From: Pseudomonas sp. SCA2728.1_7
GTDB taxonomy: Bacteria > Pseudomonadota > Gammaproteobacteria > Pseudomonadales > Pseudomonadaceae
DNA: 64,000 bases
Direction of reading: 5' to 3'
NCBI RefSeq assembly: GCF_018138145.1
Contig: NZ_CP073104.1
Location: forward strand, 1,550,001-1,614,000
Position numbers and translations under genes: made by a program. Positions 7,249 through 36,896 of the stretch are shown piece after piece; the first letter of the stretch is position 1; every line of letters begins with the position of its first letter. The notes below the pieces were generated by a model. It saw nothing but the letters and a program-made list of their open reading frames with translations, did no database searches and was not told the origin of the DNA.

Positions 7249-7274
7249 GGTTCGGCGACTTTGCCGAACCTTTT
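7249..7274 (+). terminator. hairpin with short T-run before the AruF-like gene
   Basis: GGTTCGGC / GCCGAACC is a perfect 8-bp stem with a 6-nt loop followed by TTTT. It lies 18 nt before the AruF-like start. It could end the permease transcript or act as an attenuator for the two acyltransferase genes. Confidence 0.6.
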
Positions 7275-7291
7275 GATACAGGAGTACATCC

Positions 7292-20558: not shown

Positions 20559-20646
20559 AGTTCGTAGGATTCTTCGTTTGCCCGCGTGCGAGAAGGCTGC
20601 GATCTTTTCCCTCATCCATTCCGTGACCGTGGCAGGAATTTTTTTC

Positions 20647-22026
20647 ATGACCGTGCAGCCGTTCGTCAGCCCCGACCTGATCCGCCAACGCTTCTCCAAA
20701 GCGATGTCCGACATGTACCGCGAAGAAGTGCCGCTGTACGGCGCGCTGATGCAATTGGTGGAGCAGACCAACCGCGAGGTGCTTGCACGTCAGCCGGACA
20801 TCGCCCGGCAGCTCGATAGCACCGGCGAAATCCAACGGCTGGACATGGAGCGTCATGGCGCCATTCGCGTCGGCACCGCGACGGAACTGGCCACCCTCGC
20901 CCGCCTGTTTGCGGTGATGGGCATGCAACCGGTGGGTTATTACGACCTGACCCCGGCGGGCGTGCCGGTGCATTCCACAGCGTTTCGCGCGGTGCATGAA
21001 CAAGCACTGCAAGTCAGCCCGTTTCGGGTGTTTACGTCGCTGTTGCGCCTGGAGTTGATTGAGGATGCGCAACTGCGCGCCTTTGCCGAATCGGTATTGG
21101 CCAAGCGTTCGATATTTACCTCGGAGGCGTTGCGCCTGATCGCGCAGGCTGAAAACGCGGGTGGATTGAATGAAAGCGAGGCCGAGGCATTCGTCCTACA
21201 GGCATTGGAAACCTTTCGCTGGCATCACAGCGCCACGGTTACTGCCGCGCAATACCAGACTTTAAGCGCCCAACACCGCTTGATCGCCGACGTCGTGGCG
21301 TTCAAAGGCCCGCACATCAATCACCTGACGCCGCGCACGCTGGACATCGACCGCGTCCAGGAGCAAATGCCAGCCCATGGCATCACCCCGAAAGCGGTCA
21401 TCGAAGGCCCGCCGCGCCGGCAATGCCCGATCCTCTTGCGCCAGACCAGTTTCAAGGCGCTGGACGAGCCGATCGCCTTCACCGATCAGAACCAGACCCG
21501 TGGCAGTCACAGCGCGCGTTTCGGCGAAATCGAACAGCGCGGCGCGGCACTCACGCCCAAAGGTCGGGCGCTGTATGACCGTTTGCTGAATGCCGCACGC
21601 GATGAACTCGGCGACTTTCCCAACGAAGCCAATGCCGCACGCTACAACGCGCTGATGGCTCAGCACTTTGGCGAATTTCCTGACAGTGTCGAGGGTATGC
21701 GGAAACAAGAGCTGGCGTACTTTCGCTATTTCGCTACGGAAAAAGGGCTGGCTGCTGGAGGGCTTGGGCAGTCGTCTCTGGAGGACTTGTTGCGCGATGG
21801 TTATGTGAAAGCGGAACCGTTGGTGTACGAAGACTTCCTGCCGGTGAGCGCAGCGGGGATTTTTCAGTCGAACCTTGGGGATGCGGCGCAGGCGCACTAT
21901 GGCGAGCACTCCAATCGGCAGGCCTTCGAGCAGGCGCTGGGGCGCGCGACCATTGATGAGTTGGGGTTGTATGCGGCGACGCAGCAGCGTTCGATCGATG
22001 AGTGCCTGACACAACTTGCGCGTTGA
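20647..22026 (+). CDS. hglS: 2-oxoadipate dioxygenase/decarboxylase (DUF1338, HglS/YdcJ)
   Basis: 459 residues of the DUF1338 family, described in Pseudomonas putida as HglS, an Fe(II) enzyme that converts 2-oxoadipate to D-2-hydroxyglutarate in D-lysine breakdown. Metal ligands are likely the His in GVPVHSTAFR, the His in GPHINHLTPR and the Glu in FGEIEQRG; VIEGPPRRQCPILLRQTSF lines the site. ATG 20647 is chosen. It directly follows glcDEF; its product D-2-hydroxyglutarate needs an FAD/FeS dehydrogenase, so the adjacency may be meaningful. Confidence 0.88.
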   Translation: MTVQPFVSPDLIRQRFSKAMSDMYREEVPLYGALMQLVEQTNREVLARQPDIARQLDSTGEIQRLDMERHGAIRVGTATELATLARLFAVMGMQPVGYYDLTPAGVPVHSTAFRAVHEQALQVSPFRVFTSLLRLELIEDAQLRAFAESVLAKRSIFTSEALRLIAQAENAGGLNESEAEAFVLQALETFRWHHSATVTAAQYQTLSAQHRLIADVVAFKGPHINHLTPRTLDIDRVQEQMPAHGITPKAVIEGPPRRQCPILLRQTSFKALDEPIAFTDQNQTRGSHSARFGEIEQRGAALTPKGRALYDRLLNAARDELGDFPNEANAARYNALMAQHFGEFPDSVEGMRKQELAYFRYFATEKGLAAGGLGQSSLEDLLRDGYVKAEPLVYEDFLPVSAAGIFQSNLGDAAQAHYGEHSNRQAFEQALGRATIDELGLYAATQQRSIDECLTQLAR

Positions 22027-22029
22027 AAA

Positions 22030-22113
22030 ATCAAAAGATCGCAGCCTTCGGCAGCTCCTACAGGAAAAATACATTCCAAATGTAGGAGCTGCCGAAGGCT
22101 GCGATCTTTTGAT
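22030..22113. repeat. perfect inverted repeat, 'GTAGGAGCTGCCGAAGG' class
   Basis: A 33-bp arm (22030-22062) and its exact inverse (22081-22113) flank an 18-nt spacer; each arm includes GATCGCAGCC and AGCTCCTACA. It starts 4 nt after the hglS stop and could form a strong hairpin that ends transcription before the hcp promoter. Confidence 0.9.
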
Positions 22114-22163
22114 CTGAAAAACTTGAAGCAGCCGCCTCGACCAAATGATGGCGCGTGGCCATT

Positions 22164-22183
22164 GTGCGCAAGAAGTTGCGCAC
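22164..22183. promoter_or_regulatory. upstream activator palindrome 1 for hcp
   Basis: GTGCGCAA-GAAG-TTGCGCAC is a perfect 8+4+8 inverted repeat. The same unit occurs twice more at 22246 and 22268. It is centred about 225 bp before the predicted sigma-54 start site, as expected for an enhancer-binding-protein site. Confidence 0.7.
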
Positions 22184-22245
22184 TTGTTTTGCAAAAAAAC
22201 CTGATAAAACCGCTGAAAGCCACGTCGTACAAGGCCTGCAGCCAA

Positions 22246-22287
22246 GTGCGCAAGAAGTTGCGCAGTACTGCGCAACTTCTTGCGCAC
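22246..22287. promoter_or_regulatory. double activator palindrome (units 2 and 3) for hcp
   Basis: Two more 20-bp units of the GTGCGCAA-N4-TTGCGCAC type (22246-22265 and 22268-22287, the latter inverted) are separated by TA. Together they form one perfect 42-bp palindrome centred on AGTACT, about 130 bp upstream of the predicted transcription start. Spacing between unit centres 2 and 3 is 22 bp, two helical turns. Confidence 0.72.
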
Positions 22288-22370
22288 TTTTGCCTTGAGC
22301 GAGCGCTTTATTTCGCACAAGCGCCTGAAAAATCAGTCAAACACCCCGGCCCGTATGGCCGCCACAATTG

Positions 22371-22387
22371 TTGGCACGCTCCTTGAT
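22371..22387 (+). promoter_or_regulatory. sigma-54 (RpoN) promoter of hcp
   Basis: TTGGCACG-CTCC-TTGAT matches the -24/-12 consensus: GG at 22373-22374 and GA (consensus GC) at 22385-22386, with the required 10 nt between. The start site should lie near 22398, leaving a leader of about 60 nt before hcp. Palindromic activator sites lie upstream, and no competing sigma-70 boxes stand out. Confidence 0.75.
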
Positions 22388-22457
22388 AACAGTCAGGCAC
22401 CCACCGGGCGATTTCGCCTCCCGGGCACCTTAAATTATTCCGCAAGGAGAGCACCCC

Positions 22458-22973
22458 ATGGCAACACCAGCGTACATGTCGGTTACCGGCGAAAAACAAG
22501 GCCTGATCACTGCAGGCGCTTTCACCGCTGACTCCGTAGGCAACACCTACCAGGAAGGCCACGAAGACCAGGTTATGGTTCAGGCTTTCAGCCACGACGT
22601 GATCATCCCGCGTGACCCACAATCCGGTCAGCCAACCGGTCAGCGCGTTCACAAGCCAGTTGTGATCACCAAGGTCTACGACAAGGCTTCGCCTCTGCTG
22701 CAAGCCGCTCTGACCTCCGGCGAGCGCATGAGCGAAATCGTTATCCAGTGGTTCCGTACTTCTGCTCAAGGCACCCAAGAGCACTACTACACCACCAAAC
22801 TGGAAGACGCGATCATCGTCGCCATCAACAACAAAATGCACAACTGCCAGGATCCAGGCAACTCGCACTTCACCCACCTGGAAGAAGTGCAGTTCACCTA
22901 CCGTAAAATCACTTGGACCCACGAAGTATCCGGTACTTCGGGTTCCGATGACTGGCGTGCTCCAGTCGTTTAA
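22458..22973 (+). CDS. hcp: type VI secretion tube protein Hcp
   Basis: 171 residues of the Hcp family: MATPAYMSVTGEKQGLITAG, the long VMVQAFSHDVIIPRD loop, HKPVVITKVYDKASPLL, and the C-terminal EVQFTYRKITWTHEVSG. Hcp hexamers stack into the inner tube of the type VI apparatus and carry effectors. AAGGAG precedes the ATG by 9 nt. Codon use is strongly biased, as for a highly expressed protein. There is no structural tss cluster in this window, so it is an orphan hcp relying on a machine encoded elsewhere. Confidence 0.96.
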   Translation: MATPAYMSVTGEKQGLITAGAFTADSVGNTYQEGHEDQVMVQAFSHDVIIPRDPQSGQPTGQRVHKPVVITKVYDKASPLLQAALTSGERMSEIVIQWFRTSAQGTQEHYYTTKLEDAIIVAINNKMHNCQDPGNSHFTHLEEVQFTYRKITWTHEVSGTSGSDDWRAPVV

Positions 22974-22993
22974 TTACGGCTGATCGTTACAAG

Positions 22994-23025
22994 CATCGGC
23001 CAGCTCTGCTGGTCGATGTTGTTTT
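22994..23025 (+). terminator. hairpin between hcp and vgrG (terminator or attenuator)
   Basis: CATCGGCCAGC / GCTGGTCGATG forms an 11-bp stem with one G-T pair and a TCT loop, followed by TTGTTTT. Partial termination here would leave much more hcp than vgrG message, fitting the stoichiometry of tube and spike. Confidence 0.65.
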
Positions 23026-23064
23026 CGCAACTCCAGATTTTTGTGACAGCACGAGGAACAAGGG

Positions 23065-25107
23065 ATGTTCGCGCCGGCCAATGAAACCCACTTTGCCCTG
23101 ACCATCGAAGGTCTTTCTGCTGACTTTCAGGTATTCACCCTGCAAGGTCGCGAAGCCATCAGCCAGCCTTTTGTGTTCGAGGTGGAGCTGGTCAGTGAGC
23201 AGCCGTCGCTGGACCTCGAAACCCTGCTGCACAAACCGGCCTTCCTGCAGCTGTCGCCCGACGGCAGCGGCATTCACGGCCAGATCTACCGCGCCGCGCA
23301 AGGCGATTCCGGCAAACGCCTGACCCGTTATTCGGTGACCCTGCGCCCGCAACTGTCCTACCTGGCGCATCGCGTCAACCAGCGCATCTTCCAGAACCTC
23401 AGCGTGCCGAAAATCATCGGCAAGGTCCTCGAAGAGCACGGTATTCAAAGCAACGCCTACGAATTCAAGACCGGTTCGATCTATCCCGAGCGCATCTACT
23501 GCGTGCAGTACGATGAATCGGACCTGCATTTCATCCAGCGCCTGTGCGAGGAAGAAGGTATTCACTACCACTTCGAGCACACGGCAACGGCGCACAAACT
23601 GATCTTCGGCGATGACCAGACGGTGTTCCCGAAACTCAAGCCTGTGGCCTATCAGCAAGACTCCGGCATGGTCGCCAGCGACCCGGTGATCAAGCGCTTC
23701 GACCTGCGCCTGGAAACCCGTACCAGCCGCACCACCCGTCGCGATTACGACTTCGAAAAACCACGCCTCACCCTCGAAAGCGAAAACCGTGGCGACGCCC
23801 TGCCCGACCTCGAAGACTACGACTACCCGGGTCGTTTCATCGACCGCGAGCGCGGCAAACACCTGGCCAAGCGCGCCCTCGAACGTCATCGCAGCGACTT
23901 CCAGTTGGCCGAAGGCAAAAGCGATCAGCCATTGCTGGTCAGCGGCCACTTCCTTGCGCTCACCGCGCACCCGAAAGCCAAGTGGAATGACCTCTGGTTA
24001 CTGACCGAAGTCCACCACGAAGGCAAGCAGCCGCAAGTCCTCGAAGAGTCGGTAACCAGCGACACCACTGCACTCAAAGACGATTTCCATCAGGGCTATC
24101 GCAACCGCTTCCAGGCCACGCCGTGGGACGTGCCCAACCGCCCGCCCCTGCGCCACCCGAAACCGCGCATCCTCGGTAGCCAGAGCGCCGTGGTCACCGG
24201 CCCGAAAGGCGAAGAGATCCATTGCGACGAATACGGCCGCGTCAAAGTGCAGTTCCACTGGGACCGCGAAGGCCAGGCCGACGACAAAACCAGCTGCTGG
24301 CTGCGCGTCTCCAGCGCCTGGGCCGGCGCCCAGTATGGCGGCATCGCCATCCCACGCATCGGCATGGAAGTGCTGGTCACCTTCCTTGAAGGCGACCCCG
24401 ATCAACCGTTGATCAGCGGCTGCCTGTACCACAAGGAAAACACCGTCCCCTATCCACTGCCGGCGAACAAGACCCGCAGCACCTTCAAGACCCTCAGCTC
24501 CATGGGCGGTGGCGGCTACAACGAACTGCGCATCGAAGACAAAAAAGGTCAGGAGCAGATCTACCTGCACGCCCAGCGCGACTGGGACGAAAACGTCGAG
24601 CACGACCAGAAAATCCGCGTTGGCAACGAACGCCACGACACCGTCGAAAAGAACAGCTACAGCGAATTCAAGGCCGAAGAACACCACACCGTCTACGCCG
24701 ACCGCAAAGTCGAAACCCGCGCCAACGACCACCTGACCGTCGGCGTCAATCAGCACATCAAGATCGGCACCGGCCAGTTCATCGACGCCGGCCAGGAAAT
24801 CCACCTCAGCAGCGGCATGAAAGTGGTGATGGAAGCCGGCGCAGAGCTGACCCTGATCGGCGGCGGCAGCTTCATCAAGATCGACGCCGGCGGCGTGACC
24901 CTGAGCGGCCCGGTGATCAACATGAACTCCGGCGGCAGCCCCGGCAGCGGCACGGGCGCCGCCCCGCTGATGCCGGGCATCCTGAAACAAGCCGACGCCG
25001 ACAAGGCCGGCCAGGTCCTGACCCCGGCCCAGATCAACACCCTCAAACGCAACGCGCCGTTCTGCGAAGAATGCGAAAAATGCAAGGCAGGTGCCTGTGC
25101 CATCTGA
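23065..25107 (+). CDS. vgrG: type VI secretion spike protein VgrG (TssI)
   Basis: 680 residues. The gp27-like N-terminal part (about 1-370; FALTIEGLSADFQVFTLQGRE, YDESDLHFIQRLCEEEGIHYHF) is followed by the gp5 OB-fold (ILGSQSAVVTGPKGEEIHCDEYGRVKVQFHWDR) and a beta-helix needle built of short repeats. It trimerises as the puncturing tip. After the needle comes a ~40-residue tail with four cysteines (CEECEKCKAGAC), a possible metal site and adaptor-docking region. Its 3' end overlaps the DUF4123 gene by about 17 nt. Confidence 0.95.
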   Translation: MFAPANETHFALTIEGLSADFQVFTLQGREAISQPFVFEVELVSEQPSLDLETLLHKPAFLQLSPDGSGIHGQIYRAAQGDSGKRLTRYSVTLRPQLSYLAHRVNQRIFQNLSVPKIIGKVLEEHGIQSNAYEFKTGSIYPERIYCVQYDESDLHFIQRLCEEEGIHYHFEHTATAHKLIFGDDQTVFPKLKPVAYQQDSGMVASDPVIKRFDLRLETRTSRTTRRDYDFEKPRLTLESENRGDALPDLEDYDYPGRFIDRERGKHLAKRALERHRSDFQLAEGKSDQPLLVSGHFLALTAHPKAKWNDLWLLTEVHHEGKQPQVLEESVTSDTTALKDDFHQGYRNRFQATPWDVPNRPPLRHPKPRILGSQSAVVTGPKGEEIHCDEYGRVKVQFHWDREGQADDKTSCWLRVSSAWAGAQYGGIAIPRIGMEVLVTFLEGDPDQPLISGCLYHKENTVPYPLPANKTRSTFKTLSSMGGGGYNELRIEDKKGQEQIYLHAQRDWDENVEHDQKIRVGNERHDTVEKNSYSEFKAEEHHTVYADRKVETRANDHLTVGVNQHIKIGTGQFIDAGQEIHLSSGMKVVMEAGAELTLIGGGSFIKIDAGGVTLSGPVINMNSGGSPGSGTGAAPLMPGILKQADADKAGQVLTPAQINTLKRNAPFCEECEKCKAGACAI

Positions 25108-25834
25108 TCGAATTACGCCCAAGGATTGGCTGGCGCAACAGCCGTTGCAGACTGGCGAGCGTTTGTATCTGGTTATTAGTGCGGCGAGTGATTCCGACGC
25201 ACTGAAAAACCTCTATCTCACCGAACCCACCGCCCAGCTCATCCCGATCTGGGGCGGCACGCCCTACTCCACCTGGCAACCGGTGATGCCCTACGTCACC
25301 GAGCTCAAAGCCAATTCGGCATTCTTGCCGTGGATCGCTGAAACCGATGCTCTCGATTGGGGATGGTTGGCGGTGTCGCGTTCCGAGCCGAATGAAGTGT
25401 TCGAGCATCTGCGCAGTCTGACGCAGGTGAAGATGCCGGACGGGACCGAGGTGTTTTTCCGGTTTTGGGATGGGCGGCATATCTATCCGATTCTGCATGG
25501 GCTGGGGGAGAAGGCTGGGGAAGTGATGTCGATGTTTGAGCGGTATCTGATTAATGGGCAAGCGCTGGAGGTTGGGACGCGGGTTGTGCCGAAGGTGAAA
25601 GATTGGCCGTGGTGGGAGGTGCCGAAGCCGTTACTGGATGGCTTAGCCAAGGAAAATCCGACGACGCTGATCAGCAACTTGATGCAGTGGCTGGAAGAAG
25701 ACCGTCCGGACATTTACACCGCTTGGCCCGAAAACAACCTGAAGCTGAAAATCAGCCGTTTCGTGCGCCGTCCGGACGCACCGAAAAACCTTAAAGAAGC
25801 ACTGTTAAACCACCTGATTCTGGAGCAAGGCTGA
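25091..25834 (+). CDS. DUF4123 adaptor/chaperone for the RHS effector
   Basis: About 247 residues of the DUF4123 (Tap/Tec) family: GERLYLVISAASDSDALKNLY, AQLIPIWGGTPYSTWQPVMPYV, LDWGWLAVSRSEPNEVFEHLRSL, EVFFRFWDGRHIYPIL. These cytoplasmic adaptors load a specific effector onto its cognate VgrG and are not secreted. It starts at GTG 25091 (or GTG 25097) inside the vgrG 3' end and its stop overlaps the RHS start (TGATG). Base composition shifts towards AT from about 25,400, at the passage to the effector. Confidence 0.9.
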   Translation: MPVPSDRITPKDWLAQQPLQTGERLYLVISAASDSDALKNLYLTEPTAQLIPIWGGTPYSTWQPVMPYVTELKANSAFLPWIAETDALDWGWLAVSRSEPNEVFEHLRSLTQVKMPDGTEVFFRFWDGRHIYPILHGLGEKAGEVMSMFERYLINGQALEVGTRVVPKVKDWPWWEVPKPLLDGLAKENPTTLISNLMQWLEEDRPDIYTAWPENNLKLKISRFVRRPDAPKNLKEALLNHLILEQG

Positions 25835-28800
25835 TGGTCGCAAAGGAACGCATTGCCTTCGTTGACAACCAACTGAAGAATTTCAAGAACAGCCTGACGA
25901 TTTACCAGAAGCAAACCCATTCCTGGTACGCAAGTCTGGCTGATGAAGTCAGCCACAAGACCGATAAACCTTCCCTGCTGGGTATGGAACGGATCCTCAA
26001 AGCCGGCAGATCCTCGACCGCGGTAAGCATGACAGATGACAATTTCAGCGTCGTGGCTCAATGCCCGCTGAAAGGCCCTATGCTGATCGAGAGCAAATTC
26101 GAATCTCTTTATGATATTCCCGTGGGGAATATTGAAGTCGAGATCGTTCCAGAGGGTGGCGGCGCCATCAACAAGGTCAAGCTTGATGCTCAGGGTAAAG
26201 CCAGTTGGTCAGGTGGGGTCCCGGGTAAAAAATACGTAATCCGTGTTCATAACGAAGTAACGCCAGCGCAGATTGACACACTGTTTGACTCGTACAAGGG
26301 ACTCAACAGTGAACTCGAAGGTTTTCTGCGCAACAAATGGACCGGGCCTGGCGGATATCGCCAGCAGTGGTCAAGCCTATCTCTTTCCGGCACGGTCATG
26401 GCTATTGGTAGCGGCATCCTTGACGGTGGTTGGGAGGCAATTAAAGGCGTTTGGGATGGGATCAAACTTGTCCTGGATATCCTTCAGGACCCCGGCAAGT
26501 TTGGTAAAAAACTCGGCGAAGGTGCACAAGAGCTTATCGAAGTAGCAAAAACCGCCCCTGAAGTCATGAAAAAGGCCATGCTTTTGGCCAGTGACGAAGC
26601 AGCGCTTTTCCTGATGATGCATACAGCGGTTATTTGGCTGGCTAGCTTGCCCCCAATGAAAACAGCAGGTGATGCCGCGAAAATGACTACGGCGGCAGTC
26701 GTCGGCATTGCCATCGATATCGTCATCTCGATCGTTTTGACGGTGGCCGCTGAAGGAACTGGCCTGATTTATCTGGTCGCACGCATAAAGAAATATGGAG
26801 AAATCGTCCTCAACGCCGTAGTTAATTTTGTTAAGTCGATCTTCGAAATTATTAAGGGCTTCATGGCATACGTTACCAAGTATGTTCCAGTTGCGGCGCG
26901 CGGAATAGGAAGGCAGATTAAGCAAGGAACAGTGCAAGTTCGCTTCGATGGAAAATCGAATGCTCGGATAGGAACTGCGGCGCACGCTGACGATGCATCT
27001 AGACAAGCCACGACCCCCGCTAATAAAAGCGCGGAGCCTGTGTCCTGTACGCGCGTCGACAAGTGCCCGGTTTCGATGGTTACCGGCGAAGAGTTATTGA
27101 CGCTGACCGACGGTCAACTCGACGGGCTACTGCCATTTGAGTGGACGCGTCTCTACAGAACCAGCGCGGTGGAAATCGACTGCGGCTTGGGTTATGGCTG
27201 GAGCCATGCCTTGGCTCATCGCATCGAAATCAATGGCGATGAAGTCACCTGGACCGACCACGAAAACCGCTCAACCCCCTTCCCACTTCCAACCGAACAA
27301 CGCCCGGCCATCACCAACAGCCTCTCGCGCGCGGCAATTTTCCTCGGTGACGATCCATCGGAACTGATTCTGGCCCAAGCCGGCAAGCGACCATCGTTCT
27401 ACCACTTCCGCTTTAACAGCAAAGGCGCCACCCTGATCGCCATTAGCGACAGCTATGGCAATAGACTGCACGTCACACGCGATATCCATGGTCGTATCAA
27501 ACGCCTCGACAACGGCGCCGGTCGCGCCTTGCTTCTGCGCTACGACCGAAAACACATCGTCGCGATCGACTATCAGCAGTTCCTGCCCGCGGATAATCTG
27601 GAAGACGCCTGGAATACGGTGCAAACGCTGGTCACCTACAGCTATGACACTCAGCATCGTCTGATCGAGGCGAAGAACGCGGCCGGTGAAGCCGAACATT
27701 ATCGCTACAACGAACAGCACGTCATTCTCGAGCGGCAACTGGCGGGCGGCGCTGCGTTCTACTGGGAGTGGGAGAACGAAGGCAAACTGTCTCGTTGCAC
27801 ACATCACTGGGCCAACTTCTCGCAGATGGAGGCGCACTACGCCTGGGATGACAAAGGCAGCGTGACTGTCACCAACGCCGACGGCAGCGAAGAGGTGTAC
27901 ACCCACGATGATCAGGCACGACTGATCAGCAAGATCGACCCGGACGGTGCCGAGCATCTCAAGGCCTACAACGACAAAGGCCAATTGATCGCGGAAAAGG
28001 ATCCGTTGGGTGCCGTCACCGAGTACCGCTACAACGACAACGGCTTGATGACTGCCGTCATCCCGCCGGAAGACGAAGCCACCACGTATGAATACGTCAA
28101 CGGTTTCGTCAGTGATGTTCATCGCGGCAAAGCCAGTTGGAAGTACCAACGCAACCGTCAAGGCGATATCACCCAGCAAATCGATCCGGACGGCAATGCC
28201 ACGCTATACAGCTACGACGGCCAGGGGCGTCTGCTGGAGATTCGCCACCCGGACGGCAGCCGTCATCAACTCGGCTGGAACAACCTCGGCCAGTTGCTGG
28301 AAGAACGCCTACCCGATGGCGGCCAGCGCAAGTATCGCTACGACGCGCTGGGTCGGCAGATTACCCGCCAGGAAGAGTCCGGCGCCATTACCCAATACCA
28401 GTGGGACGCCGCTAATCGCCTCGCCCAAGTTACACTGCCGGGCGGTGCAACCCGTGCGTTTACCTATAACGCCTACGGTAATGTCACCGCTGAACGCGAT
28501 GAACTCGGCCGCATCACTCGGTACGAATACGCCGACAACCTGCATCTGGTCTGCAGCCGCATCAATCCGGACGGCAGCCAACTTCGCTATCGCTATGACA
28601 ACTCTCGTCTGCTGCTGACTGAAATCGAAAACGAGCGCGGCGAGCAATACCACCTCGACTACTACGCGAACGGCCTGATCCAGCAGGAAACAGGCTTCGA
28701 CGGTCGTCGCACGGCTTACGAGTATGACCTCAACGGCCAACTGCTGAAGAAAACCGAGTTCGGCGACGATGGCAGCGAACTGGTCACTGAGTATCAGCGC

Positions 28801-30519
28801 GATGCGGCTGGCCGGCTGCTGGTGAAAACCCTGGCCGATGGCGAAGAAATCCACTACAGCTACGACGCCCTCGGTCGCCTCGTAAACGTCGATGACGGCA
28901 ACTGGCCGCTCGCCTACAAATACGACCTGCAAGACCGCCTCATCGAAGAACACCAAGGTTGGGGCACCCTGCGCTACGAGTACGATAGCGTTGGTCAGCT
29001 CAAACACTGCCGCCTCCCTGACGGCAGCAAACTCGATTACCGTCACCAACCGGGCGGACAACTGAGCAGCATCGACCTCAATGGCTCGCGCCTGACCTCT
29101 CACCAGTTCAGTGCTGGGCGCGAACAAAAACGTCAGCAAGGTTTGCTGCTCAGCCAATACCAGTACGACGAACAAGGCCGCCTGCAAGCCCACACTGTTG
29201 GCCAGCGAGACAAGAACCTGTTCCAGCGTCGTTATAATTACGATGCCAACGGCAACCTCGCTGGCATTGATGACAGCCGCAAAGGCAATCGCAGCTACCA
29301 CTACGACCCGCTCGATCGACTCATCAGCGTGCGCGGTGCTACTCCGGAAAGCTTCGCCCATGACCCGGCGGGCAACCTGCTGGGCCAAAACAATGAAGGC
29401 ACAGCAAACCTCGCCAACGTCAAAGGCAACCGCCTGCTGATGCAGGGTGATCGTCACTACGAGTACGACGCGTACGGCAACCTGAGTCGCGAACGCCGTG
29501 GCACAGGACAGAAACTCGTCACCGAGTATCGTTACGACTGCCAGCACCGCTTGATCGGCGTTAGCCTACCGGGTGGCAGCACTGCAACCTACAAGTACGA
29601 TGCCTTCGGTCGACGTATAGAAAAAACCGTCGACGGCCACATCACCGAATTCCTGTGGCAAGGCGAACGCCTGATTGCCGAAAGCGCCGAAAACCGTTAC
29701 CGCAGTTACATCTACGAACCGGGCAGCTTCCGCCCATTGGCGATGCTCGATGGCGAAGGCCCACGTAAAGCAACGCCGTTCTATTACCAACTCGACCACC
29801 TCGGCACACCGCAGGAGCTCACCGACTACAGCGGCGAGATCATGTGGTCGGCGAAGTACCGAGCCTACGGTAATCTCGCCGCGCTGGACGTCAGCGAGAT
29901 CGATAACCCGTTGCGGTTCCAGGGTCAGTATTTCGATGCCGAGACAGGGTTACATTACAACCGGCACCGCTACTACAATCCGGGAACTGGACGGTTTTTG
30001 ACTCCGGATCCGATCAAACTTGCAGGTGGTTTGAATAGCTACCAGTACGTGCCGAACCCTACGGGGTGGGTGGATCCGTTGGGGCTAGCAAGTAAAGAGT
30101 GTGATGAGCCTGAACCCTATAACAACTCCGCTCATAACGCCGCCAAATACGAAGCCATGAAGCGTGATCTTAGAACGACTGAGGCTGCGAATCCCTTAGT
30201 CGAAAGTTTGCGGGCCACTGGTGATCTTCCCCCAAATTACGTTACAAAAGCTCAGGCAACACAAAGCGGATGGAAAAAAGGTAAAGCAGTCAACAATAGC
30301 GTTCCTGGCGGGCAGCTAGGCGGTGATGTTTTTTACAATGATACAAACGTACTTCCTTCAGCCCCCGGCCGAACCTGGTATGAAGCTGACGTCGGTCTCA
30401 ATAACACGATGTCGCGGAGCAATCAGCCGGGGACCAGGCTACTCTACTCAGATGACGGACTCCTCTACATAACTAGTGATCATTACGAAACTGTTACCCC
30501 TATTGGAAAGTGGAAGTGA
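25834..30519 (+). CDS. RHS-repeat type VI effector with C-terminal barnase-type RNase
   Basis: 1561 residues. The N-terminal ~390 contain a beta-rich stretch and hydrophobic helices (about 245-315, including IAIDIVISIVLTVAAEG), without a recognisable PAAR motif. YD/RHS repeats run from about 400 to 1400 and form the encapsulating shell, closing with the core motif GLHYNRHRYYNPGTGRFLT and DPLGL near 1413-1417. The last ~145 residues match barnase: LPPNYVTKAQ, GGDVFYND, GRTWYEAD, TRLLYSDDG, TSDHYETVTP. The catalytic set of barnase is kept (Glu about 1517, Arg about 1528 and 1535, His about 1550), so an RNA-cleaving toxin is expected. The start overlaps the DUF4123 gene; barstar follows by 6 nt. 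Confidence 0.95.
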   Translation: MVAKERIAFVDNQLKNFKNSLTIYQKQTHSWYASLADEVSHKTDKPSLLGMERILKAGRSSTAVSMTDDNFSVVAQCPLKGPMLIESKFESLYDIPVGNIEVEIVPEGGGAINKVKLDAQGKASWSGGVPGKKYVIRVHNEVTPAQIDTLFDSYKGLNSELEGFLRNKWTGPGGYRQQWSSLSLSGTVMAIGSGILDGGWEAIKGVWDGIKLVLDILQDPGKFGKKLGEGAQELIEVAKTAPEVMKKAMLLASDEAALFLMMHTAVIWLASLPPMKTAGDAAKMTTAAVVGIAIDIVISIVLTVAAEGTGLIYLVARIKKYGEIVLNAVVNFVKSIFEIIKGFMAYVTKYVPVAARGIGRQIKQGTVQVRFDGKSNARIGTAAHADDASRQATTPANKSAEPVSCTRVDKCPVSMVTGEELLTLTDGQLDGLLPFEWTRLYRTSAVEIDCGLGYGWSHALAHRIEINGDEVTWTDHENRSTPFPLPTEQRPAITNSLSRAAIFLGDDPSELILAQAGKRPSFYHFRFNSKGATLIAISDSYGNRLHVTRDIHGRIKRLDNGAGRALLLRYDRKHIVAIDYQQFLPADNLEDAWNTVQTLVTYSYDTQHRLIEAKNAAGEAEHYRYNEQHVILERQLAGGAAFYWEWENEGKLSRCTHHWANFSQMEAHYAWDDKGSVTVTNADGSEEVYTHDDQARLISKIDPDGAEHLKAYNDKGQLIAEKDPLGAVTEYRYNDNGLMTAVIPPEDEATTYEYVNGFVSDVHRGKASWKYQRNRQGDITQQIDPDGNATLYSYDGQGRLLEIRHPDGSRHQLGWNNLGQLLEERLPDGGQRKYRYDALGRQITRQEESGAITQYQWDAANRLAQVTLPGGATRAFTYNAYGNVTAERDELGRITRYEYADNLHLVCSRINPDGSQLRYRYDNSRLLLTEIENERGEQYHLDYYANGLIQQETGFDGRRTAYEYDLNGQLLKKTEFGDDGSELVTEYQRDAAGRLLVKTLADGEEIHYSYDALGRLVNVDDGNWPLAYKYDLQDRLIEEHQGWGTLRYEYDSVGQLKHCRLPDGSKLDYRHQPGGQLSSIDLNGSRLTSHQFSAGREQKRQQGLLLSQYQYDEQGRLQAHTVGQRDKNLFQRRYNYDANGNLAGIDDSRKGNRSYHYDPLDRLISVRGATPESFAHDPAGNLLGQNNEGTANLANVKGNRLLMQGDRHYEYDAYGNLSRERRGTGQKLVTEYRYDCQHRLIGVSLPGGSTATYKYDAFGRRIEKTVDGHITEFLWQGERLIAESAENRYRSYIYEPGSFRPLAMLDGEGPRKATPFYYQLDHLGTPQELTDYSGEIMWSAKYRAYGNLAALDVSEIDNPLRFQGQYFDAETGLHYNRHRYYNPGTGRFLTPDPIKLAGGLNSYQYVPNPTGWVDPLGLASKECDEPEPYNNSAHNAAKYEAMKRDLRTTEAANPLVESLRATGDLPPNYVTKAQATQSGWKKGKAVNNSVPGGQLGGDVFYNDTNVLPSAPGRTWYEADVGLNNTMSRSNQPGTRLLYSDDGLLYITSDHYETVTPIGKWK

Positions 30520-30525
30520 ATCAAA

Positions 30526-30813
30526 ATGATAGTTGAGCTTGATGGATTGTCCATCTCATCTGAGCAAGAATTCCATAAGCGGATAGCGTCTGCTTTTTCT
30601 GTTACTCAATACTATGGAAATAATCTTAATGCGCTTTGGGATCTACTCAGCACCGATGTAGAGCGCCCAATTGAATTAATTTGGACAAACTCAAAACATT
30701 CAGAAGAACTAATGGGCGACTCATATAGAAAAATATTAATTATTCTTGATCGAGTCAAAACTCAAGATGAAAACTTTGGACTGGATGAGAAATTTAGTTA
30801 CCAACTGAAATAG
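30526..30813 (+). CDS. barstar-family immunity protein
   Basis: 95 residues resembling barstar: an opening strand (MIVELDGLSISSEQEFHKRI), then YYGNNLNALWDLLSTDVERPIELIW, which is the barstar signature helix-loop that plugs the barnase active site, then DRVKTQDENFGL. Cytoplasmic. It starts 6 nt after the RHS stop, so it is co-expressed, and protects the producer from the RNase tip. AT-rich compared with the RHS core, as usual for swapped tip/immunity modules. Confidence 0.93.
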   Translation: MIVELDGLSISSEQEFHKRIASAFSVTQYYGNNLNALWDLLSTDVERPIELIWTNSKHSEELMGDSYRKILIILDRVKTQDENFGLDEKFSYQLK

Positions 30814-30823
30814 TAAAGCTGTA

Positions 30824-30871
30824 AACGGGGAGCAGACCACGTTTTATTTTGTCTGAAGGTGGTCTGTCCCT
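30824..30871. repeat. inter-module palindrome GGGGAgCAGACCAC ... GTGGTCTGTCCC
   Basis: CAGACCAC (30833-30840) pairs with GTGGTCTG (30859-30866), extended by GGGGA/TCCC. It sits between the barstar gene and the displaced RHS tip. Relatives appear at 32293, 32836 and 32907. Confidence 0.75.
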
Positions 30872-30880
30872 GAATAACAC

Positions 30881-31807
30881 CGCAGCTACATCTACGAACC
30901 TGGCAGTTTCCGCCCATTGGCGATGCTCGATGGCCCACGTAAAGCCACGCCGTTCTATTACCAACTCGACCAACTCGGCACACCGCAGGAGCTCACCGAC
31001 TACAGTGGTGAAATCATGTGGTCGGCGAAGTACCGAGCCTACGGTAACCTCGCAGCGCTGGACGTCAGCGAGATCGATAACCCATTGCGCTTCCAGGGTC
31101 AGTATTTCGATACCGAATCAGGGTTACATTACAACCGCCACCGCTACTACAATCCGGGGACTGGACGGTTTTTGACGCCGGATCCGATAAAGTTAGTCGG
31201 TGGATTGAACGGTTACCAATACGTGCCGAATCCAACGGGCTGGGTAGATCCGCTAGGTTTAAATTGTACGCCAGGACAATGTCCTGATGCCGAGCCTCCC
31301 AAATGGACTGAAAATTCAGTATTTAATAAATACCCAAAGAAAACGGTCATAAAAACCTCTGGGCCAGAGGAACAAGCCGCTTTCCTACAAGAACATTTGC
31401 CTGGACTGCCTAAGGAGCAGGCTCAAATGATCCTTGAACAATCGTATAAAAAAGGAACGTCCGTTGTCATCGGCGGAAGTCGAGTAAGGGGGGACAGTCA
31501 CCCCGGTAGCGACTTGGATGTTGGATTCGGAGATGTCAATGCAAATAAAGCCGGCAAAATACTTAAAGACCTTAAAAAATCATTTGAGGGAAAGGAAGGC
31601 TTTTTGTCGCTCGAAGAAACTAAAATCGCGCCCGGCAACAAAACTGCATCCATTGAAGAAATAAAATCTCCAGAAGAATTTTTCCAACGCTCAGGTAAAC
31701 GTTCTAAGCAGGATCAGAAAGCAGGTGAAGCTTATAGACCATCGGGTTCAATAACGCTTAAAGAGGATGGTACGATCACGCTTATACCACCTGGAGAATT
31801 TCCATGA
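30881..31807 (+). pseudogene. displaced RHS tip with nucleotidyltransferase-like toxin domain
   Basis: From 30881 to 31261 the DNA repeats the 3' end of the main RHS core (29701-30087) in frame with few changes and one 6-bp deletion, up to the same DPLGL. A TAA at 30875 closes the frame just upstream and no start codon fits, so it is a silent 308-codon cassette. The unique part (about 182 residues) contains VVIGGSRVRGDSHPGSDLDVGF, the G-S-x-x-G-D...D-x-D signature of polymerase-beta-type nucleotidyltransferases such as MNT-like toxins. Homologous recombination in the shared core would give a complete RHS protein with this tip. It ends with ATGA overlapping the next gene. Confidence 0.88.
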
Positions 31808-32235
31808 TTTTTAAATCAGCCGGCACAGAAGTCAATCTAAACACGGTCACTTACAGGAGCCTTGGCTTCGGTGAGAAATCAATTCTCGAAACAAAAAAAT
31901 ACGAAATGACGATAAACAACGATGAGTTCCCGGAAAACTTCATCAACCATGCAAACTCTTTTATTGCCGAATGCAAAATTGATGACTCTGAGCAAGGCTA
32001 CGCTGACATTCCCGAACTAAAAAAAATAGGCTACCCAGCCTTTAATGAAATTTTAAACGACCATCACAACTTGGCTGCCAGCCTTATAAAAGATTATCTT
32101 TACTTCGAGCTTTTTTACTTCCTATTCCCCAACTCAAGAGAACTTAAGTTGGTTATTAACAGTATCGAAGACATAAAATCAGATGGAAGATCAATTACAA
32201 TCACGGGCGACACGTATCCAGTTCAGAAAATTTAG
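31804..32235 (+). CDS. probable immunity protein for the displaced nucleotidyltransferase tip
   Basis: 143 residues, family not recognised. Acidic and soluble, with a helical centre (AFNEILNDHHNLAASLIKDYLYFELFYFLF) and a terminal strand-rich part. GGAG lies 6 nt before the ATG, which overlaps the toxin stop (ATGA). Position immediately after a toxin tip, AT-rich composition and size are what make immunity likely; there is no sequence-based proof. Confidence 0.7.
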   Translation: MIFKSAGTEVNLNTVTYRSLGFGEKSILETKKYEMTINNDEFPENFINHANSFIAECKIDDSEQGYADIPELKKIGYPAFNEILNDHHNLAASLIKDYLYFELFYFLFPNSRELKLVINSIEDIKSDGRSITITGDTYPVQKI

Positions 32236-32292
32236 AAAATCAAACCTACAACTCAAATGAGAAAAACTACAATTGTAATGACAAAAAAACCA

Positions 32293-32341
32293 GAAAAGGG
32301 GATAGATTTATTTTCTACAAACTGAAAATAAATCCGCCACT
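32293..32341. repeat. inter-module palindrome GGGGATAGATTTATTTTC ... GAAAATAAATCCGCC
   Basis: Arms around TACAAACT form a long, slightly decayed hairpin. The same sequence recurs almost exactly at 32907-32951. It lies between the 143-residue gene and the next orphan gene. Confidence 0.75.
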
Positions 32342-32398
32342 TTTTTCTGTATTATTGGAATCTTTGCCTGTCTAACGCGCGAGAACTGAAGATCCTCA

Positions 32399-32800
32399 AT
32401 GAACTACCTAGAAAAAGAAATCGATTCGGCATTATCAGAGCAGAACTTAGCGCATGAGAAATTACGCGAGAATGAACTATCTAAATTGATCATGAAGCTA
32501 ACGGCATCATTTTTTTCTTCTGAAACAAAGGGCCTCGACCCTTTTTACTTGAGGAAGCCACAAAAAAAACACGATCCAGACTTCTGGAAAAAAGTAAACA
32601 CTCTCGAAAATTTTGAGAACCCCTTCCTAATAGTTCAAGACAGTAAGATTCACGCTTGGAAACTAGTGACCTCTGCAGATCTTAAAACGCTATTTTTCGA
32701 ATCGACTGGATTCCCATTCTGGATAGTCGACGACAACTTCGAAGTGCTAATCTATATGGACGATCATGATTGCGTTCATACCAGTTATAGCACTCAATAA
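32399..32800 (+). CDS. orphan protein, possible immunity gene
   Basis: 133 residues, not recognised. It starts with a charged helix (NYLEKEIDSALSEQNLAHEKLRENELSKLI), then KGLDPFYLRKPQKKHDPDFWKKV, and ends in a mixed strand region (FPFWIVDDNFEVLIYMDDHDC). No signal peptide. The AT-rich composition matches the neighbouring immunity genes. It lies between two copies of the inter-module palindrome with no toxin fragment of its own, so it may be a leftover immunity gene of a lost tip. The ribosome-binding site is weak (GAAGA). Confidence 0.6.
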   Translation: MNYLEKEIDSALSEQNLAHEKLRENELSKLIMKLTASFFSSETKGLDPFYLRKPQKKHDPDFWKKVNTLENFENPFLIVQDSKIHAWKLVTSADLKTLFFESTGFPFWIVDDNFEVLIYMDDHDCVHTSYSTQ

Positions 32801-32835
32801 ACACAAATCGACTCTAGGTAACCGAAAGAAATAAA

Positions 32836-32882
32836 ACGGGGACAGACCACGATTCCTTATTTTAAACGGGGCAGATCAGACA
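32836..32882. repeat. partial inter-module repeat GGGGACAGACCACG
   Basis: AAACGGGGACAGACCACG and, 30 nt on, AAACGGGGCAGATCAGAC are half-copies of the palindrome at 30824, without a full inverted arm. They lie in the gap between the orphan gene and the IS element. Confidence 0.6.
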
Positions 32883-32906
32883 AAAATGGAACCGACTAAA
32901 AGCAAA

Positions 32907-32951
32907 AAGGGGACAGATTTATTTTCTACAAACTGAAAATAAATCTGTCCC
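32907..32951. repeat. inter-module palindrome interrupted at its end by the IS
   Basis: GGGGACAGATTTATTTTC and GAAAATAAATCTGTCCC are perfect inverted arms around TACAAACT. The right arm supplies the AAATCTGTCCC that is duplicated on both sides of the IS4 element, so the IS entered this hairpin. Confidence 0.8.
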
Positions 32952-34465
32952 GAATGGCACTTACTTAACAGCTAACCACCTGATCTGAAAGCAAAAAATG
33001 AAGAAGGGCTGGTCTTGGTCTACGGTGATAGTTGCGAACACACCCCGACAAACCAAGGACACAGCCCCAAATGGATCGTAGACGTGAAATTCTTCAGCAT
33101 CAACAGCAACGTTTTCATCGACACGCTTCGGACTGCGATGCCTATGCGTTTTTCAATCTCCTCACGTCTCCCGATCTCTTACAACGCGTCGAGTCTGAAC
33201 TGCCAGAACATCGGGAACGCCTGTTTCCGCCAATTGAAACGTTGTCTATGTTTCTGGCTCAAGCAATGAGCGCCGACCGCTCCTGCCAGAATGCTGTGAA
33301 CGACCTGTCGATTAAACGGTCATGTGGCGGCATGAAACCCAATAGCACTCGCACGGGCGCCTACTGCAAAGCCAGAAAACGCCTGCCTGTGGAAATGGTT
33401 TCCACGCTGGTCAGGCACACCGGTGCTTCGATAAGTGATAACGCACCCTCGTCGTGGCGCTGGAGGGGACGGCCGGTGCGGCTGGTGGATGGCACGACGG
33501 TCAGCATGCCCGACACAGCGGCTAATCAGGACGCCTATCCGCAATCTCGCGGCCAGAAAGTCGGTCTTGGTTTTCCGTTGTGTCGAGTGGTGGGCATCGT
33601 CTGCCTCTCCAGCGGCGCCGTTTTAGATGCTGCCCTTGGGCGTTTCCGAGGCAAGGGCGGCGATGAACAGACACTGCTCAGATCAATGCTAGACACGTTG
33701 AAAACAGGTGACATTTTGTTGGGCGATGCTTACTACGCTACCTATTTCCTGCTGTGCGAGTTGCAACGAAGAGGTGTCGATGGCGTGTTCGAACAATATG
33801 GCGCTCGACGGCGCAGCACGGACTTTCGCTTGGGTCAAAGTCTCGGTTCGGAAGATCATCTGATCGAATTGAAAAAGCCTGCAAGAAGACCACTGTGGAT
33901 GAGTCAGGCGCATTACGAAAAGGCGCCTGAAAGACTGACCGTGCGGGAGTTGAAGGCGGGTGGGAAAACTTTGGTCACCACGTTGCATTGCCCAAAGCAG
34001 ACACCTAAAACAGCCCTGAAATCGCTGTACAAGGGGCGATGGCATGTTGAACTGGATCTGCGCAATCTCAAAGCTACGCTGGGGCTTGGAAAGTTAAGCT
34101 GCAAAACCCCAGGCATGGCAGTAAAGGAGTTATGGGTCTATCTGTTAGCTCACAATCTGATCCGAATGCTGATGGCACAATCGGCTCTGTTAGCTGACTG
34201 TTTACCTCGCGAACTGAGCTTCAAACACAGCCTTCAGCTATGGCTGGCGCTGCGACAATATGGCAGCCCCGAAGACGAGGATGGCCTGTCAAACTTATTG
34301 ACGCTGATCGCTCAAAGGCGCGTTGGAAACCGACCTGGTCGTATCGAGCCGCGAGCCATAAAACGAAGACCTCAAGCCTACCCCTTACTGACCAAATCAC
34401 GTCGGTCAGCAAGGGCAGAGGTCAGAAAAAACGGGCACCCAAAACATGTTAAGTAAGTGCCATTC
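32952..34465 (+). mobile_element. IS4-family insertion sequence, complete
   Basis: A 1514-bp element with perfect 19-bp terminal inverted repeats (GAATGGCACTTACTTAACA at 32952-32970, inverse at 34447-34465). It is flanked by an 11-bp direct repeat AAATCTGTCCC (32941-32951 and 34466-34476), the target duplication; 10-12 bp is usual for this family. It carries one transposase gene and looks intact and recent. Confidence 0.93.
33071..34456 (+). CDS. IS4-family transposase
   Basis: 461 residues of the DDE transposase family. VRLVDGTTVSMPD and GDILLGDAYYATY carry the first two acidic residues, and YKGRWHVELDLRNLK fits the IS4 Y-(2)-R-(3)-E-(6)-K signature exactly, supplying the last catalytic Glu. 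A RNase H-like core with a beta-strand insert is expected. ATG 33071 gives a typical N-terminus (MDRRREILQHQQQRF); the frame is open further upstream. The gene reads through to the right inverted repeat. Composition is close to the host average, richer in GC than the surrounding cassette region. Confidence 0.94.
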   Translation: MDRRREILQHQQQRFHRHASDCDAYAFFNLLTSPDLLQRVESELPEHRERLFPPIETLSMFLAQAMSADRSCQNAVNDLSIKRSCGGMKPNSTRTGAYCKARKRLPVEMVSTLVRHTGASISDNAPSSWRWRGRPVRLVDGTTVSMPDTAANQDAYPQSRGQKVGLGFPLCRVVGIVCLSSGAVLDAALGRFRGKGGDEQTLLRSMLDTLKTGDILLGDAYYATYFLLCELQRRGVDGVFEQYGARRRSTDFRLGQSLGSEDHLIELKKPARRPLWMSQAHYEKAPERLTVRELKAGGKTLVTTLHCPKQTPKTALKSLYKGRWHVELDLRNLKATLGLGKLSCKTPGMAVKELWVYLLAHNLIRMLMAQSALLADCLPRELSFKHSLQLWLALRQYGSPEDEDGLSNLLTLIAQRRVGNRPGRIEPRAIKRRPQAYPLLTKSRRSARAEVRKNGHPKHVK

Positions 34466-34479
34466 AAATCTGTCCCCTT

Positions 34480-34651
34480 TTCTTATTATATCGCGTGTTT
34501 TGATGGAGAGGATCTTTCTGGGCAGCCCCATGTGTTGATAATTCATGCTTATGCGTCAGAGGGCTGGGAACTTCACGCCACCTACGCTAGCTTCGATAAG
34601 TGGCTAGAAGAAGCCATGGTGCAAAATGCCGAGTGGCTCAACGAGGACTAA
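34480..34651 (+). pseudogene. 3' remnant of a small gene cut off by repeats and the IS
   Basis: From about 34480 the frame reads SYYIACFDGEDLSGQPHVL and on through IIHAYASEGWELHATYASF to KWLEEAMVQNAEWLNED and a stop. It has coding character and a plausible C-terminus, but no start of its own. It resembles the end of small immunity-type proteins (SUKH/SMI1-like possible), and is probably the residue of an older toxin-immunity module. Confidence 0.5.
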
Positions 34652-34775
34652 AAACTTTAATCCCGACAAGCCTGGTATTTGCTTTAGAAAAAACGAGAGA
34701 ACCGCAGGCAGCCCCTGAGAAATCTCGTTGTTTAACCTCTACTCCCCCGGACTGAACAATCAAAGGACTGTACCC

Positions 34776-35801
34776 TTGAAACGCCTGAATCGCCCATTTT
34801 CCATCCTCCTCGCCCTCACCTTCTCCCTTAATGCGACTGCACTGTCCCTTCGCTCCGAACAACGCCCCGACGGCACCACAGCCCTGTTACTTTCAAACGA
34901 ACCCGCCGCAGAACGAGCGCCAAAGCTCAACCAGGATCCAGCGGTGCGCTCTGCACTGGTTGATTTTTTTGGCTATCAGACCGGTAGCTACACCAACGAC
35001 AACACAATGATTGTGCAGCAGGTTCTGGAAGCGCTTGATTCGGAAATGTCGACGTTTGCGGACGGTGTGCCTGCCGGCAGCAAAATGATTACTGCCATGG
35101 ATGATGGCAACAATGGGTTTGAGCGCGGCGCATTGTTGCTTAACGACAAGGGCCAGTTGGTCGCTGTCGGGCTGGTCAATGGCCACTGTACGGTCAAGTC
35201 GCGTGAGGAGGCTTTGACCTGTAATGATGCCCCGCAAACCGTGCTGACCATTTTCCAACCGCAAGGCGCTAAACAAGCTGATGCCGAATCTTTGATTGGC
35301 TGGAGTAAACAACTGCCTCCGATGATGGCGATATGGGCGGAAAGTGATGATCCGGAGCGCCGAGCCAACGCGCAGAAAATTGCCAGCGTTGAATACGCTG
35401 CAACCAAACCGGAACAGGGAGCGTGGACAGCGGCACAGTTACCTTCCGACTTTCCCAAAGCCATGCTGGCGGTGCTTCCGCAGCGGGCTCACCTGATAGG
35501 TGCTGGCGCACACGGTGTTTTCACGACACCGGGGATGGAGGGCACGCCGATTGAAGGTGACTGGGACAAAATAGCCGGCCGTCCACAACATGAGTTCGAA
35601 GTCATTCTCCGGACTTTTACAGAGTACGCGGACGTCATCGACTTCTATCAGCAGCATGCGAAGGATGCCGAAATCAGCGGCAACCAGAGAAAGGCACTCG
35701 TTGAAGGCTATATTGGTGGCGGCACCTACAAGATTGAAATCAGTAATAGAAAAGATGAAGGCACGGTGATCACACTCTCTGCTTGGCGACAAGAAGTCTG
35801 A
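34776..35801 (+). CDS. secreted protein of unknown function
   Basis: 341 residues from TTG 34776, chosen because AAAGGA lies 8 nt upstream and the product then begins with a signal peptide (RPFSILLALTFSLNATA). The mature part has alternating strands and helices (FFGYQTGSYTNDNTMIVQQVL, GFERGALLLNDKGQLVAVGLVNGHC, FEVILRTFTEYADVIDFYQQH) and two cysteines that could pair. No family was recognised. It lies between the type VI island and a Sel1 protein that points towards it, and shares a bidirectional terminator with that gene. Confidence 0.75.
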   Translation: MKRLNRPFSILLALTFSLNATALSLRSEQRPDGTTALLLSNEPAAERAPKLNQDPAVRSALVDFFGYQTGSYTNDNTMIVQQVLEALDSEMSTFADGVPAGSKMITAMDDGNNGFERGALLLNDKGQLVAVGLVNGHCTVKSREEALTCNDAPQTVLTIFQPQGAKQADAESLIGWSKQLPPMMAIWAESDDPERRANAQKIASVEYAATKPEQGAWTAAQLPSDFPKAMLAVLPQRAHLIGAGAHGVFTTPGMEGTPIEGDWDKIAGRPQHEFEVILRTFTEYADVIDFYQQHAKDAEISGNQRKALVEGYIGGGTYKIEISNRKDEGTVITLSAWRQEV

Positions 35802-35810
35802 TTTATCCAA

Positions 35811-35845
35811 ATAAAAAAAGGGCGATCCCATGATCGCCCTCTTTC
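35811..35845. terminator. bidirectional intrinsic terminator
   Basis: GGGCGATC / GATCGCCC stem with CCAT loop, preceded by a run of A and followed by TCTTT, so it can serve both the plus-strand secreted protein and the converging Sel1 gene. Confidence 0.88.
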
Positions 35846-35871
35846 AAATCAAGATACCCTTCCTTTGCACA

Positions 35872-36846: not shown

Positions 36847-36896
36847 TTGTTACTTCCTTGTGGCTTAAAAATCCAACGAAAACCTTGCGCAAAATA

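What the first reader, a model, noticed from the sequence alone, without database searches (positions are those of the whole stretch)
25834..31807. RHS effector with a second, silent toxin tip: a toxin-switching locus
Seen: the main RHS protein ends in a barnase-type RNase with all catalytic residues, and about 360 nt after it the same last ~385 bp of RHS core (29701-30087) are repeated in frame at 30881-31261 with a different C-terminal domain. A stop at 30875 and absence of a start make the second copy silent. Known: displaced tips with their own immunity gene occur in RHS and CDI loci. Inference: recombination in the shared core would delete the RNase tip and barstar gene and give an RHS-nucleotidyltransferase protein.
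Basis: partly seen in the sequence, partly recalled or inferred. Interest (0 to 1): 0.8.

Follow-up and report, generated by a model that had tools for sequence, protein, structure and literature searches.

The report
Stacked spare toxin tips behind Rhs
A Pseudomonas weapon gene carries an older, apparently unused toxin end parked just behind its present one; relatives carry the same ends in other orders, and a small mobile hairpin often sits right at the seam.

Summary
A T6SS-linked RHS gene (25834-30519) ends in a barnase-type RNase, followed by a barstar gene. From 30879 its core end is repeated (29699-30087 vs 30879-31252, 90%), in frame, with an intact nucleotidyltransferase tip and a putative immunity gene; an in-frame stop precedes the copy. 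The alternative junction exists: Pseudomonas fluorescens 28B5 carries this tip (99%) on the full RHS gene at the same locus. But the history runs the other way. The second core is closer to 28B5's (96%) than to the present main core (90%), so it is the older end, displaced when the barnase tip was loaded. P. crudilactis has the same pair displaced behind a third tip; genome G213 has the two tips in opposite order. This is a stack of orphan Rhs tips, a kind known from Salmonella and Vibrio; switching in this strain is unproven. Not seen in the papers searched: a hairpin belonging to Y1 (RAYT-like) transposase families abuts the left edge of orphan Rhs fragments in 8 of 14 independent resolved seams, and of orphan haemagglutinin/CDI-type fragments in 2 of 3 such loci found through the hairpin alone. 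Element-made seams are testable, not shown.

The parts
23065..25107 (+). VgrG (T6SS tip protein)
   Evidence: TIGR03361 685 bits
25091..25834 (+). DUF4123 protein, presumably the adaptor that loads the RHS protein on VgrG (role recalled)
   Evidence: PF13503 88.9 bits
25834..30519 (+). main RHS gene, 1561 aa
   Evidence: RHS repeats, PF03527, TIGR03696
29699..30087 (+). core end of the main gene, first copy of the repeat
30085..30519 (+). barnase-type RNase tip now on the main gene
   Evidence: PF00545; solved barnase/binase sequences, best E 5.7e-20
30526..30813 (+). barstar-type immunity gene
   Evidence: PF01337 72.4 bits
30826..30872 (.). hairpin E2 at the seam, ending a few nt before the repeated core
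   Evidence: DNA fold -12.7 kcal/mol, z -4.6; seam; E2 repeats surround two Y1_Tnp genes
30879..31261 (+). core end of the displaced (orphan) RHS fragment
   Evidence: 96% to 28B5 main core
31262..31807 (+). displaced nucleotidyltransferase tip
   Evidence: PF01909; GGSRxRG..SDxD invariant in 32 of 32 sequences; model pLDDT 90
31804..32235 (+). putative immunity gene of the displaced tip, overlaps the tip's stop codon
   Evidence: always-downstream partner in the loci; 13 of 298 genus genomes; no Pfam family
32294..32348 (.). hairpin E1 (decayed copy)
32399..32800 (+). 133-aa gene between two E1 hairpins, perhaps an orphan immunity gene (inference from position)
   Evidence: no Pfam family
32905..32952 (.). 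hairpin E1
   Evidence: DNA fold z -8.7

Best explanation
The locus is a stack of Rhs toxin ends. An ancestor carried the nucleotidyltransferase tip on the full RHS gene, as 28B5 does now. A new end (core, barnase tip, barstar gene) was then joined to the RHS gene upstream of the old end. The old end was kept with its immunity gene and a stub of core but lost its link to the start of the gene. Shown by sequence: the structure, the fused form and both orders in relatives, and that the second core resembles the old fused form more than the present main core. Inferred: the displaced tip is not made; its immunity gene is kept because relatives still deliver that toxin; recombination between the two cores could bring the old tip back, at the cost of the barstar gene. 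Least certain: how the right-hand, non-homologous seam forms. Hairpins of Y1-transposase (RAYT-like) families often lie exactly there, so breaks, joints or adjacent deletions at these hairpins are my preferred guess.
For: Fused tip at the same VgrG-DUF4123-RHS locus in 28B5 (99%), and with 77-80% identical tips in GM79, PCL1601 and G213. Orphan core 96% to 28B5 main core, 99% to the P. crudilactis orphan core, 90% to own main core; own main core 98% to the displaced barnase core of P. crudilactis. Window and 28B5 stay 92-99% alike from 30960 through the immunity gene, E1 and the 133-aa gene. P. crudilactis: third tip on main, barnase (100%) and nucleotidyltransferase (99%) modules stacked behind. 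G213: order reversed. G036: orphan core and most of the tip replaced by a DDE transposase, 29 tip residues and the immunity gene left. Hairpin within 4-10 nt of the orphan edge in 8 of 14 independent seams and 5 and 11 nt in two FHA/CDI-type loci.
Against: 6 of 14 seams have no E1/E2 hairpin, and in the third FHA locus (L122) no orphan fragment was found. The window's genome has no E1-type transposase at E 1e-20. 63 of 79 E1 clusters are near neither RHS cores nor listed FHA repeats. Which species lines exchanged DNA is not resolved, so 'ancestor' rests on identities and shared layers, not on a dated tree. Expression, toxicity and immunity are untested.
Confidence: 0.75

Rival explanations
1. 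Toxin-switching cassette: the silent tip is held so that recombination between the two cores can put it on the main gene in part of the population.
For: About 300 nt at 91% in direct repeat; the fused form exists in relatives; such recombination between main and orphan (522 bp, 95%) was selected in Salmonella (PMC3967940, passages); in G213 the three cores are 91-95% alike within the genome and 78-88% to the others compared, as intragenomic recombination would leave.
Against: The only change read here goes the other way. No recombinant of this strain was available. The switch would delete the barstar gene and expose the cell to its sisters. Compatible with the best explanation as a side effect.
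Confidence: 0.3
2. Homology-facilitated illegitimate recombination alone: incoming DNA is anchored by the RHS core on the left and joined at random on the right; hairpins lie at seams only because they end modules as terminators or fill loose spacers.
For: Proposed for Vibrio immunity arrays, where breakpoints were not at specific sites (PMC5361080, sections 12-13 read). Hairpins with T-runs look terminator-like; 6 of 14 seams lack them. E1 clusters are found at many other places.
Against: The homology starts 4-11 nt after a hairpin arm in 10 cases at different positions of the gene; random joining in spacers of 63-364 nt would seldom do so.
Confidence: 0.35
3. The short copy is expressed by itself from an internal start and works as an intracellular toxin-antitoxin pair.
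For: In-frame TTG/ATG and an open frame of 296 aa; orphan rhs in Salmonella has been reported as toxin-antitoxin (PMC7043789, listing and start of abstract only).
Against: No + strand promoter-like site in 30087-32600; the possible starts lie within the core's own coding sequence.
Confidence: 0.08

Closest known systems
rhs main / rhs-CT orphan locus of Salmonella Typhimurium LT2 (PMC3967940, passages read)
   Same: Full rhs gene plus immunity gene, then a start-less orphan tip with immunity gene behind shared core sequence; orphan tip fused to full genes in other strains
   Different: There recombination was observed in evolved lines; here only the outcome in relatives. Here a RAYT-like hairpin sits at the seam; I saw none mentioned in the passages read
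Effector-immunity arrays of Vibrio cholerae T6SS clusters, sequential displacement (PMC5361080, abstract and sections 12-13)
   Same: New effector end added in front, older immunity genes kept behind, intermediate forms found in other strains
   Different: Here the toxin tips themselves are often still whole; there no specific integration site was found, here a hairpin recurs at seams
Orphan cdiA-CT/cdiI modules (PMC3150448, passages)
   Same: Displaced toxin/immunity pairs with varying lengths of upstream gene
   Different: A different delivery protein; the IS elements told of there interrupt orphans rather than mark their left edge, in the passages read
REP/REPIN with TnpA-REP (RAYT) transposases (PMC6006769 and PMC2817692, passages; PMC3116915 listing only)
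   Same: Short hairpins around a Y1 transposase gene and scattered in the genome
   Different: E1 begins AAAAGGGGAC and lacks the GTAG/GTGG foot of canonical REPs; low copy (0-29 half-sites per genome). It may fit the atypical subclass 2.6 or class 3 of PMC6006769; not tested

Membership tests
Orphan rhs-CT/rhsI module | Tip behind a main rhs gene, with a piece of the shared core, in frame | tested here: met
Orphan rhs-CT/rhsI module | No initiation signals of its own | tested here: inconclusive
   Stop at 30875, no + strand promoter-like site, but in-frame TTG/ATG inside the copy
Orphan rhs-CT/rhsI module | Same tip found on a full-length Rhs protein elsewhere | tested here: met
   L031, L033, L034, G213 and more distantly G028
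Orphan rhs-CT/rhsI module | Linked gene gives specific immunity | not testable with these tools
   Only linkage shown: present behind the tip in the loci that hold the tip, and kept alone in G036 and G198
Pol-beta type nucleotidyltransferase | GS motif and DxD in a nucleotidyltransferase fold | tested here: met
Barnase/barstar pair | Ribonuclease fold family with catalytic residues, barstar partner | tested here: met
   the position recalled as R83 is Gln
REPIN of a RAYT | Hairpin repeats flank a Y1 transposase gene | tested here: met
   E1 in 30 of 30 fetched loci of the 232-aa family, the best matches; E2 around 2 of 17 Y1_Tnp genes
REPIN of a RAYT | Canonical GT[AG]G foot | tested here: not met
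   Element begins AAAAGGGGAC; hence 'RAYT-like', not filed as a canonical REP
REPIN of a RAYT | Transposase cuts and moves the element | not testable with these tools
   none

The most novel reading that the evidence does not exclude
In Pseudomonas, hairpins of Y1 (RAYT-like) transposase families make or fix the seams at which old toxin ends are cut off and stacked behind the current one, in both Rhs and CDI-type loci: an element-assisted build-up of toxin and immunity arrays.
Probability: 0.35. Interest if true: 0.75.

Novelty: new variant of a known kind. Interest (0 to 1): 0.5.

Why it matters
How polymorphic toxin loci gain new ends while keeping old ones is open: the Vibrio study proposed rare illegitimate joining and reported no evidence of an integrase (PMC5361080). 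A hairpin that recurs exactly at the seam, with a definable transposase family, would make that question directly testable.

Tried and rejected
Plasmid collection: 62 records, none covering 80% of the query, the listed rows being short matches of 66-70% identity. Rfam: 0 matches in 20000-37000. The immunity model (pLDDT 91) found no fold match (best E 0.38). The window genome's single Y1_Tnp gene (163-aa frame) has no E1 or E2 nearby. Edges taken from protein alignments were imprecise and were replaced by DNA edges. Origin of the second core as a copy of the present main end was rejected.

Counting. 19 orphan-type cores were listed for edges. Left out: L110 and L102 (homology runs through long frames), the first of L107 (contig start), one of L104 (run of N upstream). 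L032's second edge is the window's own seam and is counted with it. That leaves 14: 8 with a hairpin (window/L032, L096, L106 with a degenerate E2-like one, L024 twice, L025 with half an E1, L032 first, L035 second) and 6 without (L105, the second of L107, L035 first, L098, L104 first, L111). These loci come from genomes that have E1 or from the tip search, so they are no random sample. The binomial figure mixes E1 and E2 cases on an E1-only background and 13 cases; I do not rely on it. and one search list only part of the places, so (79 clusters from 31 genomes with listed sites) is a partial count. The family survey used 91 of 117 ORFs near E1 (26 dropped, nearly all short): 3 FHA, 2 DUF637 and 3 Y1_Tnp matches, the rest mostly single matches to unrelated families.

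Paper searches for a link of palindromes or RAYT with orphan toxins returned long lists of which I saw only the top rows; only (RAYT with Rhs; the element string) are clean zeros, in an open-licence library.

Full report
What is there. The window lies in a complete genome of 6.78 Mb; its closest named matches are Pseudomonas. VgrG (23065-25107), a DUF4123 protein (25091-25834) and an RHS gene (25834-30519) stand in a row. The RHS tip matches Ribonuclease PF00545 and solved barnase/binase sequences (best E 5.7e-20); a barstar gene follows. At 30879 the last part of the core begins again, 90% identical, in frame after an in-frame stop, and runs into a second tip with a nucleotidyltransferase domain and a 143-aa gene that overlaps its stop codon. 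Four further RHS-core matches lie elsewhere in the genome.

The alternative junction exists. In a sample of 298 genus genomes, own included, the tip was found in 4 and the immunity gene in 13. One scan of named genomes gave 5 loci. 28B5 (L031), GM79 (L033), PCL1601 (L034) and G213 (L024) have the tip on the main RHS gene behind VgrG and DUF4123; G028 (L027) has a more distant one (57-59%) on a full gene. For 28B5 the genes downstream of the array are shared with the window too.

Which end is older. The window's second core is 96% identical to 28B5's main core and 99% to the P. crudilactis orphan core, but 90% to its own main core; the main core is 98% identical to the displaced barnase core of P. 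crudilactis. Behind the second tip, window and 28B5 stay 92-99% alike through the immunity gene, E1 and the 133-aa gene, up to about 32880. The simplest history: nucleotidyltransferase on main; then barnase plus barstar loaded upstream; then, in P. crudilactis (L032), a third tip loaded, which displaced a longer fragment (from about residue 734) with the barnase module. The barnase and barstar genes are identical base for base between window and L032, so this segment moved or split very recently. In G036 (L026) the same barnase/barstar/E2 order is followed by a DDE transposase in place of the orphan core and most of the tip, with 29 tip residues and the immunity gene left. In G198 (L025) the main tip differs and only the last bit of the nucleotidyltransferase tip and its immunity gene remain. 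In PfAR1 (L035) the displaced tip is frameshifted. In G213 the order is reversed: nucleotidyltransferase on main, another module, then barnase/barstar displaced; its three cores are 91-95% alike, against 78-88% to the others compared.

The seams. Where does each orphan Rhs fragment begin? In 8 of 14 independent resolved cases the homology to full RHS genes begins 4-10 nt after the arm of a hairpin: E1 (AAAAGGGGACAGATTTATTTTC and its reverse complement) in L096, L024 twice, L025 (half), L032 and L035; E2 in the window (shared with L032); a degenerate E2-like one in L106. Six have none. E1 is rare: found in 38 of 144 genomes at up to one mismatch, at most 29 half-sites in a genome, with 0 hits for the reversed control pattern.

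What the hairpin is. Twenty loci were fetched because of E1 alone. Three hold large filamentous-haemagglutinin proteins, one with a pretoxin HINT domain. In L116 a 295-nt fragment, 96% identical to the main gene, begins 5 nt after an E1 arm; in L120 a fragment begins 11 nt after an E1 half-site; in L122 none was found. L116 also holds a 232-aa Y1 (IS200-like) transposase. Relatives of it occur in 68 of 298 genus genomes, not in the window's. The 30 best of these loci were fetched and 30 of 30 carry E1, in most of them close to both ends of the gene. Of 17 Y1_Tnp genes found in eight genomes, one has E1 and two have E2 around them, 14 neither. E1 and E2 are thus ends or miniature forms of RAYT-like families, without the canonical REP foot. 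Of 79 E1 clusters, 9 lie within 5 kb of an RHS core (0.43 expected) and 7 within 10 kb of an FHA repeat (0.34 expected); without G000 and G036, 7 and 7 of 76; 63 of 79 are near neither. These come from partial lists.

How it works. Shown: the stack, the fused forms, the order of ages, hairpins at many seams. Inferred: a new end is joined to the RHS gene by homology on its left; the right side is joined without homology, at or next to a hairpin that ends the incoming or preceding module, or is trimmed by deletions that start at the hairpin; the old tip falls silent; its immunity gene is kept against relatives; the tip may return by recombination in the core, or decay. I could not tell insertion from adjacent deletion; tandem full-length RHS genes exist in G011, G016 and G017, so both stay open.

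Against the literature. Orphan Rhs tips, their fusion in other strains and recombination between main and orphan are known from Salmonella (PMC3967940, passages). Stacking with kept immunity genes is known from Vibrio, with homology-facilitated illegitimate recombination proposed and no specific site or integrase found (PMC5361080, abstract and sections 12-13). Orphan CDI modules are in PMC3150448 (passages). Y1 transposases with atypical hairpins are described in PMC6006769 (passages). No held paper contains both whole words RAYT and Rhs, and none the string GGGGACAGATTTATTT; wider searches were seen only in their top rows. The library is limited to open licences.

Verdict. Observation confirmed; interpretation partly supported and turned round in time. 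The locus is a clear case of a known kind; the hairpins at the seams are the part worth following.

Noticed in passing
33032-34456: IS4-family transposase directly behind the array (NF033592, 234 bits); in G036 another DDE transposase sits inside the array.
   Followed up: partly
25834-27000: The N-terminal part of the RHS gene exists in two divergent forms at the same locus: 61-76% identity to 28B5, G198, G213 and GM79 but 81-91% to G036, while VgrG next to it is much more alike.
   Followed up: no
L024 (G213) 1963-8157: Three RHS cores in one array are more alike within the genome (91-95%) than to other genomes (78-88%), as if homogenised by recombination.
   Followed up: partly
L105 about 5880-5939: This orphan edge lacks E1/E2 but abuts another repeat-like sequence (GGGTCAATTTTC type), which looks to me like an insertion sequence end (recalled, untested).
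   Followed up: no
L116 5600-12400 (G009): FHA/CDI-type locus followed by a row of small genes with 17 E1 half-sites and an E1-type Y1 transposase inside the row.
   Followed up: partly
32399-32800: 133-aa gene of no known family, framed by two E1 hairpins; its relative in L031 aligns in two overlapping pieces as if frameshifted, in L032 it is whole.
   Followed up: no
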